From Gammaproteobacteria bacterium (lineage in GTDB: Bacteria > Pseudomonadota > Gammaproteobacteria > Enterobacterales > Kangiellaceae): a stretch of 64,000 nucleotides of DNA. Under the pieces are notes generated by a model. It made no database searches and was not told the origin of the DNA. It worked only from the letters and a program-made list of their open reading frames with translations. The translations under genes and the position numbers were made by a program. Where the stretch lies: positions 1 to 64,000 of the forward strand of contig JABXHY010000057.1 of NCBI GenBank assembly GCA_013373375.1. The letters are read 5' to 3'. Position 1 is the stretch's first letter. Each line of letters opens with the position of its first letter. Shown here one piece after another: positions 2,855 through 49,826 of the stretch.

Positions 2855-3383
2855 TTTGTTCTCCTTGAAACGAATTTTAAAATTAAGACACGGCTACGCA
2901 ATACCTCAAATGAGTGAAGTGTAAATTACGGTGAATTGGACTGGGAAAGACTTGTAAAAAAGTAAATCGCTTATCCATAGCCTGAAAAGCCGTGTCTACC
3001 TTTAACACGATGTTGGTGCAACAACCCTTATGCATCAACGCGGGCATAATAGAAAAATAAAGTAATTGAAACAAGCTTACATTTAAATAATTAAATGATT
3101 TATCTCAATTGAATAATTTAGCAATAGTTAAGAATGTAATTCACTAAATTAAGAAATAAAAACATCTCAAATAATCACGCGGCTTGTCTCGAATATTGTG
3201 CTGCGTGTTTAAAGATATTTGAATTCCTTATTAATTATTGGGGCTGGTCACTCGATAAATCGTCAATGGCGATATTGAAAAAGAATGGGTGACAACTGAC
3301 ACTCAATGTAAAAAAATATAAAAATTGTTTATACTGGATTGATACCTATAACCTCATCGACAACATCGATTGGAACTTCCGCA
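2855..3383. other. intergenic region, divergent promoters
   Basis: About 530 bases between divergently transcribed genes (protease leftward, cupin rightward). The part from 3080 to 3170 is very AT-rich. The region must hold both promoters, but I cannot define convincing -35/-10 pairs. A short leftward reading frame at 2883-3074 has no family resemblance or ribosome-binding site and is not called. Confidence 0.4.
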
Positions 3384-46988: not shown

Positions 46989-47690
46989 ATGAAAAATATT
47001 TTATTAGTTTTTACCGGTTTTATATTATTTTCCGCTTTTCAAGTTATGGCGAGCGATGAGATCGCTGGCGAGTGGCACGGAAGCCTTAAAGTTCCCAATG
47101 GGGAGTTGCCGATAGTCATTCATTTGAGCAAATCTGGCGAGAATTGGTCTGGTAAATTAGACTCTCCAGCTCAGGGCGGTTTTGATTATCCAATGTCGTC
47201 GGTGGACGTAGAGGGTAATAAACTTATTTTTACAATAAAAGCGATGTCAATTCATTACGAAGGTGAATTATCGGCCAGCAACAATCAAATCAGTGGCAAT
47301 TTTATGCAAGGAGCAGTATTTCCATTAACGTTCGAGCGTCCGGTTGACAAACAAGCTCAACGTGTAAAAACTAGTGAGGCGTCGATGGTTGTTGGCACAT
47401 GGAGTGGTGTTTTAAATATTCCAGGAAATCCATTGACAGTGGTTTTTAACATTTCTGGAGACAATAATGAATTATCCGCTACACATGAAAGCCCAGACCA
47501 GGGAGAGGGTTCCATTCTTGTCGACTCAGTGAAATTCGAAGATGGAGAGCTTACTTTAAAAATGAAAACCATTGGCGCAGAGTTTAAAGGTCTGGTGATA
47601 AAAGAGGGTAGCGTGATTGACGGAACCTTTATGCAAAATGGTTTTAAATTAGCATTAAAGTTGACCCCAGGAAGACTAAAAAAAAACTAG
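46989..47690 (+). CDS. N-terminal part of alpha/beta hydrolase: secreted duplicated beta-barrel-like domain
   Basis: 233 residues as read. Signal peptide (about 1-21), then two homologous domains of about 100 residues (26-115 and 128-228). Each starts W-(H/S)G-x-L-x-(V/I)P and ends with a G-x-F-MQ(G/N) segment, lipocalin-like in pattern. The frame stops at TAG 47690 directly after a run of nine A. A -1 shift there (AAA AAA AAC TAG re-read as AAA AAA AAA CTA GTT) joins it to the hydrolase frame, giving one 570-residue protein. In related exported hydrolases these domains precede the alpha/beta hydrolase in one chain. So this is either a sequencing or mutational frameshift, or programmed slippage. 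Confidence 0.75.
   Translation: MKNILLVFTGFILFSAFQVMASDEIAGEWHGSLKVPNGELPIVIHLSKSGENWSGKLDSPAQGGFDYPMSSVDVEGNKLIFTIKAMSIHYEGELSASNNQISGNFMQGAVFPLTFERPVDKQAQRVKTSEASMVVGTWSGVLNIPGNPLTVVFNISGDNNELSATHESPDQGEGSILVDSVKFEDGELTLKMKTIGAEFKGLVIKEGSVIDGTFMQNGFKLALKLTPGRLKKN
47678..47690 (+). other. A9 slippery site with A-AAA-AAC heptamer and stop
   Basis: Nine A residues (47678-47686) followed by CTAG. In the reading frame this is AAA AAA AAC TAG, which contains the classical A AAA AAC heptamer for -1 slippage; the zero-frame stop follows immediately. Transcriptional slippage adding one A would have the same effect. No clear downstream pseudoknot is visible. Confidence 0.6.
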
Positions 47691-47866
47691 TTAATCGCCC
47701 TCAAACGCCGAAACCTCCATTCAACTACACGACTGAAGAGGTTTCGGTACGTAACGAGCAAGATCAAGTCACACTCGCTGGAACACTGTCTATTCCGAAC
47801 TCGAAGATCAAAGCAACTGCCATTCTTATCACAGGTTCAGGTCCTCAGGACCGCGACGAATCCATC

Positions 47867-48700
47867 ATGGGGCATAAACCTTTTGCGGTCATCGCTGATT
47901 ATTTAACAAACCGTGGTTTTGCCGTGTTGAGAATGGATGACCGCGGCGTTGGTAAGTCTGAAGGTTCATTTAAAGATGCTATCCCTCAGAATTTTGCAAA
48001 CGACATTAATTCCGCAGTCAATTATTTGAAACAAAGAAAAGATATTCCATCGGATACCATTGGTTTAGTTGGTCACAGTGAAGGCGGGATGATCGCACCA
48101 ATGGTCGCTAGTAAGCGTGACGATATCGCATTTGTCGTTCTATTGGCTGCACCGGGTATTTATATTGATGAATTATACGCAGAACAACGCTACTTAATAA
48201 TGAGAGCCAGTGGATTAAACGATGAATGGCTAAAAGAAATGTATGAGAGCGAGAAAAAAGTTTTCGCTGAAATACGTAAATTACCAGTTGAACAGGATAT
48301 CCCAGAGTCATTAATCAATGATTTAAAAGCCGCTCATTCTGCGTTGGAACTTAACGATAATTCTACCGACCAATTAATTGAATTTATGTCGTCACCCTGG
48401 TTTCGCCATTTTTTCAAATATGATCCAGAACATTATTTGAAAGATCTAAATGCTCCAGTATTGGCTTTAAATGGCACACTTGATCTTCAGGTGGCTGCTG
48501 AGTCAAACTTAGCGGGTTTGCGCAGTATTTTTGAAAAGCACCAACATAAAGACTATACGATTAAAGCTCTAGAACAACTTAATCACCTTTTTCAAACGGC
48601 AAAGACAGGTAACGTAACGGAATACCATTCCATCGAACAAACCTTTGCTCCGGTCGCTCTAGAGTCTATGGTAAGTTGGTTAGATAAACGATTTAAATAG
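47867..48700 (+). CDS. C-terminal part of alpha/beta hydrolase (peptidase S9/esterase-like)
   Basis: 277 residues from the first ATG, but the open frame with protein-like sequence continues back to the A9 run: NRPQTPKPPFNYTTEEVSV and AILITGSGPQDRDE come before this ATG and are conserved in such hydrolases. The nucleophile elbow is GHSEGG with the Ser at residue 71 (364 in the joined protein); a DDRGVGKSEG segment precedes it. Asp in LNGTLDLQV and His in LNHLFQ probably complete the triad. Most likely an exported esterase or peptidase, but only if joined to the upstream signal peptide. The LytS-like kinase gene follows 58 bases downstream. Confidence 0.78.
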   Translation: MGHKPFAVIADYLTNRGFAVLRMDDRGVGKSEGSFKDAIPQNFANDINSAVNYLKQRKDIPSDTIGLVGHSEGGMIAPMVASKRDDIAFVVLLAAPGIYIDELYAEQRYLIMRASGLNDEWLKEMYESEKKVFAEIRKLPVEQDIPESLINDLKAAHSALELNDNSTDQLIEFMSSPWFRHFFKYDPEHYLKDLNAPVLALNGTLDLQVAAESNLAGLRSIFEKHQHKDYTIKALEQLNHLFQTAKTGNVTEYHSIEQTFAPVALESMVSWLDKRFK

Positions 48701-48758: not shown

Positions 48759-49826
48759 ATGCAATTATTAATAGCGCCAAAACCGGGTGGTAAGTTCTGG
48801 TTATTCCACATAATGGGCTGGAGCTTTATTTCACTGTTGAATTTTTTGAATCGACAGAGTTTCGGGGTAGAACCACTATCACATGGTTTAATTTCTTTAG
48901 GTTCTATGATACTGGTGAATGCATTTGTCTGCCTTGTTTTCCGTGAATTGTTGTATCGGCTTAAAATAATTGATATTCGACCGGGCATTCAGTGGATATT
49001 TTTGGCACTGGGTTCTGGTTTGATGGGGTTTATTTCAGGCAGTCTCATTCTCTATAGCATTAGTGTTTATTATTGGTTGGCGGGCTACACATCTTCGATC
49101 GTATTTTTTATAAATCAGGTTTATGCTAACTGGTTGATCATGACCCTCATGATATTTTTGTGGAGTATGATTTTTACGCTGACCAATCACTTTATGAAAT
49201 TACAAAAGGTTCAGGCTGAGCACGATGCACTCAACTTGAAATTAAAAGAAGCTGAACTGACAACCTTATTAAGTCAATTAAATCCACACTTTTTATTTAA
49301 TGCTTTAAATAATATACGAAGCTTAATGAGGATTGATGTGGATAAAGCACGAGCAATGGTTACTTCTCTGTCTGAGCTGTTGCGCTATTCGTTGCGTTCG
49401 AACAAGCAGCCATTTCGTGCGTTTAAAGAAGAGCTTGAAATCGTTCATAACTACATTGAGTTGGCTCAAATTCAATACGAAGAGCGTTTGTCGTTTCAAG
49501 AGGATGTTGAGTCAAATGTTTTGGATATCAGTATTCCATCCATGGTGGTTCAGTTGTTAGTGGAAAATGCAGTTCGACATGGAATAGATAAGCACTTGGG
49601 AGAAGGTACTTTGAAACTTAGTGCTAAAATAGTGACTAATAAACTCATGGTGACTGTCATTAATCCTGGATACATATCTACCTCGAATGAGAATGAGGGC
49701 AGTACTGGAATAGGTATTGAAAATATTAAACGTAGATTAGCGTTAAGTTATGGCAATGAAGCTTCTTTAGAGGTACAACAAAAAGCTGAGCAAGTTGAAG
49801 CGAAGTTGATTTTGCCACTAAAATGA
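48759..49826 (+). CDS. LytS/YehU-type membrane histidine kinase
   Basis: 355 residues with four transmembrane helices (about 15-150), then a coiled coil and the His_kinase domain with LNPHFLFNALNNIRSLM (phospho-acceptor H177). A HATPase domain follows (VVQLLVENAVRHGID, GSTGIGIENIKRRL). There is no separate sensor domain, so the membrane helices are probably the sensor. The LytTR response regulator gene starts 65 bases downstream and is the cognate partner. AAAAGG before the ATG. The system may control the upstream hydrolase or TspO-like genes, which is inference. Confidence 0.9.
   Translation: MQLLIAPKPGGKFWLFHIMGWSFISLLNFLNRQSFGVEPLSHGLISLGSMILVNAFVCLVFRELLYRLKIIDIRPGIQWIFLALGSGLMGFISGSLILYSISVYYWLAGYTSSIVFFINQVYANWLIMTLMIFLWSMIFTLTNHFMKLQKVQAEHDALNLKLKEAELTTLLSQLNPHFLFNALNNIRSLMRIDVDKARAMVTSLSELLRYSLRSNKQPFRAFKEELEIVHNYIELAQIQYEERLSFQEDVESNVLDISIPSMVVQLLVENAVRHGIDKHLGEGTLKLSAKIVTNKLMVTVINPGYISTSNENEGSTGIGIENIKRRLALSYGNEASLEVQQKAEQVEAKLILPLK

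What the first reader, a model, noticed from the sequence alone, without database searches (positions are those of the whole stretch)
47678..47690. A9 run with A-AAA-AAC slippery heptamer splits an exported hydrolase into two frames
The frame from 46989 carries a signal peptide and two repeated domains and ends at TAG 47690. Protein-like sequence with the conserved hydrolase segment TGSGPQDRDE continues in the -1 frame right after it. Slipping once on AAA AAA AAC gives a 570-residue fused protein. The stop follows the slippery site immediately, so both a short form (domains only) and a long enzyme could be made. Without slippage, the hydrolase would lack export. A plain sequencing or mutational indel is the main alternative.
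Basis: partly seen in the sequence, partly recalled or inferred. Interest (0 to 1): 0.7.

Follow-up and report, generated by a model that had tools for sequence, protein, structure and literature searches.

The report
Conserved A9 slip splits exported hydrolase
In three related bacterial genomes, one gene for a predicted exported enzyme is interrupted at the same run of nine A's, where likely slippage of the copying or reading machinery would let the cell make both a short enzyme-free form and a full-length enzyme.

Summary
A9 (47678-47686) ends a 233-codon frame (predicted signal peptide, two predicted beta domains) at TAG; an alpha/beta-hydrolase frame with its catalytic motifs continues in the -1 frame. 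Pleionea sediminis (67% identity, synonymous sites saturated) and a genome of Aliikangiella's genus (about 50%) have the same A9, phase, adjacent stop and continuation. Of 86 distinct homologous loci (from capped, best-first searches), 81 are fused in frame, two lack the front domains, and three are split; only those three carry A9. Metagenome proteins suggest further split copies. The three split genes share a predicted hairpin 17-32 nt downstream, ranking 1-3 of 67 homologs for structure beyond what the peptide predicts. I read this as conserved, productive slippage: RNA polymerase slippage on A9 most likely, -1 ribosomal slippage the main rival or helper. No expression data were available, so slippage and both products are inferred. 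It is a new, well-conserved case of a known kind of recoding, in a chromosomal enzyme gene.

The parts
46989..47690 (+). 0-frame ORF (front part, 233 aa): predicted signal peptide plus two predicted beta domains, ends ...GRLKKN-TAG
   Evidence: AF2 model of the part with strands 27-116 and 136-227, residues 1-21 low confidence; homologous fronts end in the same alignment column; signal peptide judged by eye
47678..47686 (+). run of nine A, predicted slip site
   Evidence: identical A9 in L002 1495-1503 and L004 1471-1479
47681..47687 (+). A_AAA_AAC heptamer in -1 slippery phase
   Evidence: read directly; A_AAA_AAT in L002, A_AAA_AAC in L004
47688..47690 (+). 0-frame stop TAG directly after the heptamer (TGA in L002, TAA in L004)
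47684..48700 (+). -1 frame, alpha/beta-hydrolase part (338 codons and stop), no ATG/GTG/TTG before 47867
   Evidence: (Pfam Hydrolase_4, Peptidase_S9)
47705..47752 (+). predicted mRNA hairpin downstream of the slip site; core pairs 47708-47717 with 47738-47747
48071..48088 (+). GHSEGG nucleophile motif; further triad motifs LDLQV at 48479 and LNHLFQ at 48578
48759..49826 (+). neighbouring histidine kinase gene (PF06580, same strand), also next to the hydrolase in L002, L003, L004
49892..50590 (+). neighbouring LytTR response regulator gene
   Evidence: similar frame in L002 and L004

Best explanation
Nine A's at 47678-47686 separate the front (two predicted beta domains behind a predicted signal peptide, 0 frame) from the catalytic alpha/beta-hydrolase part (-1 frame) of one conserved gene, and slippage there, most likely by RNA polymerase, would let a minority of products be the full-length exported enzyme while the rest end at TAG as a short, enzyme-free form. 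Shown: the split, its conservation in three genomes of two genera (with saturated synonymous divergence between the two Pleionea), low dN in both frames, fusion in frame in 81 of 86 compared loci, and a shared downstream hairpin prediction. Inferred: that slippage happens, that the polymerase rather than the ribosome is the main agent, that both products exist, and that their ratio matters.
For: Same A9, phase, adjacent stop and -1 continuation in P. sediminis (L002) and G016 (L004). Of 86 distinct loci (at least 40% identity over at least 300 residues), 3 are split and 3 of 3 have A9; 0 of the other 83 have A9 at the junction. Window versus L002: N-part dN 0.45 and C-part dN 0.25, NG86 dS not computable for saturation (YN00 failed); differences by codon position 94/62/157 and 95/50/202. 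Catalytic motifs are kept. Metagenome fronts P0002, P0003 and P0004 end in the same column, KKK or KKN. P0003 and detached C-part P0041 are reported with the same source and contig length of 17015. The split falls in the coil after beta domain 2 in the model of the naturally fused A. coralliicola ortholog (GQYKKKVSSRPQTP at residue 233), so the short form would be two whole domains. Polymerase rather than ribosome: the wobble A outside the heptamer is kept in 3 of 3; P(A9 given the peptide) is 0.11-0.22 per gene with the window's codon use. A_AAA_AAC is a low-efficiency heptamer in E. coli (PMC4066793 passages). A9 goes with 50% slippage product in Thermus dnaX (PMC1088944 passages). A11 before a stop gives 20-25% in Citrobacter tssM1 (PMC4256274 Discussion).
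Against: No RNA, ribosome or protein data. The shared downstream hairpin cannot act on a polymerase still at A9 and so speaks for a translational or other RNA role. No unusual structure lies upstream of A9, where a nascent-RNA stimulator of polymerase slippage would act (z 0.48, 0.66, -0.08). In 11 of 40 A9/A10 runs of this genome the run sits inside a frame open at least 100 codons on both sides, so A9 slippage here may be modest or tolerated. One E. [quoted passage not shown] Synonymous conservation around the junction is not significant (p 0.10 for window versus L002, 0.68 and 0.91 for the other pairs).
Confidence: 0.6

Rival explanations
1. Programmed -1 ribosomal frameshifting on A_AAA_AAC/U, helped by the downstream hairpin, makes the long form.
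For: Heptamer in the right phase in 3 of 3 split genes. Hairpin ranks 1-3 of 67 homologs under peptide-preserving shuffles in four window settings and is the lowest-z window of 177, 178 and 180 windows in the three split genes. A_AAA_AAC is a proven site in one IS cluster without a known stimulator, and among the commoner heptamers of IS1/IS3 elements (PMC4066793 passages); it is also among the heptamers of GeneTack clusters (PMC3711429 passages).
Against: Hairpin spacers are 17-20 nt (window, P. sediminis) and 26-32 nt (G016), against 5-9 nt usual and 11-14 nt known (PMC5009743 passages); weak outer pairs from 6 nt appear only in one fold of the window. In one of four settings two fused homologs come close (-3.12 and -3.02 against -3.14 for L004), and fused L003 has a stronger structure elsewhere (z -6.1). 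A_AAA_AAC is weak in E. coli and the strong A_AAA_AAG is not used. No Shine-Dalgarno-like element common to the three was seen by eye.
Confidence: 0.3
2. Phase variation: replication slippage in the A run switches the full-length enzyme on and off between cells.
For: A homopolymer inside the frame of a predicted exported protein; poly-A phase variation is described for other genes (PMC3711429 passages).
Against: All three genomes show the same split state, and three metagenome fronts end in the same column. The P. sediminis contig title gives 56-fold coverage; its consensus has A9. The exact run with an adjacent stop is retained at saturated divergence.
Confidence: 0.06
3. A fresh mutation, decaying pseudogene or sequencing error.
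For: Most compared homologs are fused in frame (81 of 86), so the split state looks derived; one relative, G067 (L023), does show an ordinary-looking frame break elsewhere.
Against: Identical split in three genomes from separate assemblies, no stops in the -1 frames, low dN with saturated dS in both parts, and two well-supported split clades.
Confidence: 0.02
4. Two separate proteins: the hydrolase part is started on its own, by reinitiation or an internal start, and works in the cytoplasm.
For: P. sediminis has TGATG at the junction, giving an ATG in the hydrolase frame, and its database protein starts there (P0007). G016 has GTG codons about 22 codons after the junction, before the conserved TGSG segment, and the gene calls P0041 and P0044 start at that place.
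Against: The window has no ATG/GTG/TTG in the hydrolase frame before 47867, which is after the conserved TGSGPQDRDE segment. 81 of 86 compared loci are fused to front sequence, and the two short ones begin at their own signal-like sequence.
Confidence: 0.05

Closest known systems
Citrobacter rodentium tssM1 transcriptional frameshifting (A11 before a premature stop; PMC4256274, abstract and Discussion read)
   Same: A run of A's shortly before the stop of a front part; slippage makes a minority full-length protein beside an abundant short form in a non-mobile gene.
   Different: A9 instead of A11; a predicted exported hydrolase, not a secretion-system part; here conserved across two genera; no experiment yet; a shared downstream hairpin prediction.
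Thermus thermophilus dnaX A9 transcriptional slippage (PMC1088944, PMC3711429 passages)
   Same: Nine A's; two products of one cellular gene.
   Different: In dnaX slippage makes the shorter product; here the templated frame is the short one and slippage is needed for the fused enzyme.
IS1 (heptamer link partly recalled) and E. coli dnaX type -1 ribosomal frameshifting (PMC4066793, PMC5009743 passages)
   Same: A_AAA_AAC heptamer in phase (IS1), downstream RNA structure (dnaX).
   Different: Hairpin 17-32 nt away instead of 5-9; no shared Shine-Dalgarno element seen; a full nine-A run is kept.
EstD-like / S33-type alpha/beta hydrolases with N-terminal beta domains (NCBIfam NF041096 best hit, far under its cut-off: 139.4 of 600 bits)
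   Same: Catalytic domain and GHSEGG motif; Pfam Hydrolase_4 above cut-off.
   Different: Gene is split between two frames; not an EstD by the curated cut-off.

Membership tests
Genes with productive transcriptional slippage on poly-A | A or T run of about nine or more at the frame break | tested here: met
   A9 in 3 of 3 split genes
Genes with productive transcriptional slippage on poly-A | Extension in the shifted frame conserved among homologs | tested here: met
Genes with productive transcriptional slippage on poly-A | Run of that length avoided in the genome | tested here: inconclusive
   1 against 9.9 expected in the window, 40 distinct runs in 4.53 Mb, yet 11 of 40 sit inside open frames
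Genes with productive transcriptional slippage on poly-A | mRNAs with altered run length | not testable with these tools
   no RNA data
-1 programmed ribosomal frameshifting | X_XXY_YYZ heptamer in phase, then open -1 frame | tested here: met
-1 programmed ribosomal frameshifting | Stimulatory structure 5-9 nt downstream (usual, not obligatory) | tested here: not met
   shared hairpin starts 17-32 nt downstream; weak outer pairs from 6 nt only in the window's 80-nt fold
-1 programmed ribosomal frameshifting | Shine-Dalgarno-like stimulator upstream, common to homologs (not obligatory) | tested here: not met
   AGGAAG in the window only, by eye
-1 programmed ribosomal frameshifting | Frameshift product detected | not testable with these tools
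   no protein data
Esterase EstD (NF041096) | score above curated cut-off of 600 bits | tested here: not met
   139.4 bits
alpha/beta hydrolase superfamily (Hydrolase_4, PF12146) | score above gathering cut-off, triad motifs | tested here: met
   53.6 against 27 bits; GHSEGG, LDLQV, LNHLFQ (triad assignment from recalled knowledge of the fold)

The most novel reading that the evidence does not exclude
A chromosomal enzyme gene sets the dose and delivery of an exported hydrolase with a two-layer slip signal: an A9 that both RNA polymerase and the ribosome can slip on, plus a remote downstream hairpin unlike known stimulators, making a free exported beta-domain protein and a minority full-length enzyme in a fixed or regulated ratio, kept since before the Pleionea species diverged and present in a second genus.
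Probability: 0.25. Interest if true: 0.7.

Novelty: new member of a known kind. Interest (0 to 1): 0.52.

Why it matters
Long-lived productive slippage in ordinary bacterial enzyme genes is, as far as I recall and the read passages suggest, seldom documented outside mobile elements, secretion systems and dnaX. Here the split state can be set against 81 fused relatives, which allows a direct test of what a cell gains by making the domain-only form. The P. sediminis hydrolase part is held in NCBI as a stand-alone protein without the front (P0007), so the enzyme appears non-exported. The hairpin 17-32 nt away is an unexplained signal that can be tested in a simple reporter.

Tried and rejected
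Sequencing error or pseudogene: rejected through relatives. Other apparently short homologs: L069 and L104 begin at their own signal-like sequence; L023 is an ordinary-looking break elsewhere without an A run; none is a slip site. L159, the only other of the 40 A9/A10 runs where a frame of at least 100 codons ends at the run and another of at least 100 continues, is an overlapping pair that looks like rnc and era (names recalled, by eye). Upstream RNA structure: none unusual. Synonymous-site conservation near the junction: not significant. Single origin of the split: not decidable; two split clades, AU p 0.41 for one clade (31 rows, with 25 of the fused proteins chosen by me). Fold of the front part: no PDB match at E 0.001 or better, only weak small-barrel or lipocalin-like matches. 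Literature for this gene: one search gave 2 papers, one search gave 1, searches gave none; by title none is about this gene; only listings were seen.

One search did not list the P. sediminis or G016 fronts, and one search did not list a G016 hydrolase part, so those searches or their database miss known cases. One search kept the best 80 of at least 571 confirmed relatives, and one search scored 7999 candidates; 56 of its 60 listed proteins are 450 aa or longer and 4 are detached hydrolase parts (P0006 from the window, P0007, P0041, P0044). For the hairpin ranking only loci with the RPQ-type motif were used: 67 distinct of 113 loci; the rest were dropped.

Full report
What is there. The window carries A9 at 47678-47686 followed by C. 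The 0 frame, 46989-47690, ends CTA AAA AAA AAC TAG; the -1 frame is open from 47684 to the stop at 48698-48700. The front part (233 aa) has a predicted signal peptide (by eye) and no Pfam or NCBIfam hit. The back part is an alpha/beta hydrolase: Hydrolase_4 53.6 bits against a cut-off of 27, with GHSEGG, LDLQV and LNHLFQ. Between the junction and ATG 47867 the hydrolase frame has no ATG, GTG or TTG, so an ordinary separate start would cut away the conserved TGSGPQDRDE segment (47831).

Relatives. In 41 genomes including its own, the relatives that share the split are G001:C26 (67% identity) and G016:C134 (about 50%). NCBI places both named species in Pleioneaceae. L002 reads GTA AAA AAA AAT TGA, L004 reads GTA AAA AAA AAC TAA, and both continue in the -1 frame. 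A. coralliicola is fused in frame, with AAG AAA AAA G at the junction. In the held family 6 of 40 genomes have a match at 1e-30 or better, 3 of them split; in a sample of the order, 18 of 394 have a match.

How unusual the split is. Of 113 loci (one search kept the best 80 of at least 571), 111 match the hydrolase part; 86 are distinct with at least 40% identity over at least 300 residues. Of these 81 have at least 80 open codons upstream in frame. Five do not: the window, L002 and L004, each with A9, and L069 and L104, which lack A9 and begin at their own signal-like sequence. Among 60 proteins at 1e-90 or better (7999 candidates scored), 56 are 450-589 aa and four are detached hydrolase parts, one being the window's own. 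A length-limited search with the front part found three further close fronts (P0002, P0003, P0004), all ending in the same column (KKK or KKN); the distant P0005 is not counted. That search did not list the fronts of P. sediminis and G016 that I had read from DNA. P0003 and P0041 share source and contig length (17015), so they are probably two halves of one split gene.

Age and constraint. Window against P. sediminis: 111/233 and 225/337 identical residues. NG86 dN is 0.45 and 0.25 with dS too saturated to compute (YN00 failed), and third codon positions change most. The hydrolase-part tree (31 rows) puts five split rows in two clades with 100/100 support, Pleionea (2) and G016 with P0041 and P0044 (3); one or two origins both fit.

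Where the split falls. An AF2 model of the natural fused ortholog P0024 (pLDDT 84.7, pTM 0.65) gives a low-confidence leading helix 3-21, beta domains 32-122 and 141-232, coil 233-251 and a hydrolase fold 252-580. GQYKKKVSSRPQTP starts at residue 233, so the short form would end just behind two complete domains. A model of the window's front part alone agrees (pLDDT 82.7, pTM 0.53). PDB matches to the fused model are esterases, lipases and S9-type peptidases; the front part has none at 1e-3 or better.

RNA signals. Downstream 80-nt folds have z -3.66, -2.83 and -3.85; upstream 60-nt folds are unremarkable. With shuffles that keep the peptide and codon use, the three split genes rank 1-3 of 67 distinct homologs (-3.40, -2.82, -2.77 against -2.05 for the best fused one), and again in three other settings, though in one of these two fused homologs come close (-3.12, -3.02 against -3.14). 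Along each split gene the junction hairpin is the lowest-z window (of 177, 178 and 180; in the window gene codon 177 is nearly as low, -4.08 against -4.11); fused L003 has a lower minimum (-6.1) but elsewhere. Both Pleionea genes pair the same codons (7-9 with 17-20); G016 uses the same 5' codons but a 3' arm one codon off. The spacing of 17-32 nt is beyond the usual 5-9 nt and known 11-14 nt (PMC5009743 passages), so its role is open. Codon-level synonymous conservation near the junction is not significant.

Polymerase or ribosome. For the polymerase: all nine A's are kept, including a wobble base outside the heptamer (P of A9 given the peptide 0.11-0.22 per gene). A9 is a known slippage length (PMC1088944 passages). 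Insertions rise exponentially with run length up to 9 in E. coli (PMC5574713 passages), although that study saw no restored frame, and one measurement at an A7 gave only 0.39% (PMC6260861 passage). A_AAA_AAC is a weak heptamer in E. coli (PMC4066793 passages; AAU not covered). For the ribosome: the phase is right, the heptamer is used by IS elements, and the hairpin can only matter after that stretch is transcribed. I lean to polymerase slippage as the main agent and leave a ribosomal share open. Against strong A9 slippage here: 11 of 40 A9/A10 runs lie inside frames open at least 100 codons on both sides. Only this run and L159 have a long frame ending at the run and another continuing; L159 is an overlapping gene pair.

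Neighbourhood. A histidine kinase (PF06580) and a LytTR regulator follow on the same strand. The kinase motif lies in 12 of 98 loci with the nucleophile motif, among them all split genes and A. coralliicola; L002 and L034 are the same place, and flanks differ in length. A shared regulatory role is a guess.

Verdict. A real, conserved frame split and not an artefact: a new member of a known kind (closest: Citrobacter tssM1, PMC4256274), with an unexplained remote hairpin. Slippage itself and the two products remain to be shown.

Noticed in passing
L002 1495-1510: In P. sediminis the front's stop TGA overlaps an ATG of the hydrolase frame (TGATG), so reinitiation could add a detached hydrolase there; the window and L004 lack it.
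   Followed up: partly
L144, L149, L150, L152, L154, L162, L163, L198, L201, L202, L203 (A run near 1501 in each): Eleven other A9 or A10 runs of this genome sit inside sense frames open at least 100 codons on both sides; slippage there would truncate the products.
   Followed up: partly
L159 1491-1510: A9 at an overlapping pair of long frames that look like rnc and era (recalled, by eye): gene overlap, not a frame break.
   Followed up: yes
L023 923-2343: A relative (G067) of the hydrolase is broken just after ISGSGP with no A run, in a draft genome: looks like an ordinary indel or error.
   Followed up: partly
L069 and L104, about 3000-3130: Flavivirga and Elizabethkingia homologs put a signal-like sequence directly before the hydrolase domain, without room for the beta domains.
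   Followed up: partly
   Followed up: no
L003 (fused ortholog), codons 114-120 of the frame: Very strong peptide-independent RNA structure (z -6.1) inside the fused A. coralliicola gene, away from the junction.
   Followed up: no
The fronts of P. sediminis and G016 and the G016 hydrolase part were not among the protein hits although their frames are plain in the DNA; they may be missing from protein databases as supposed pseudogenes.
   Followed up: no
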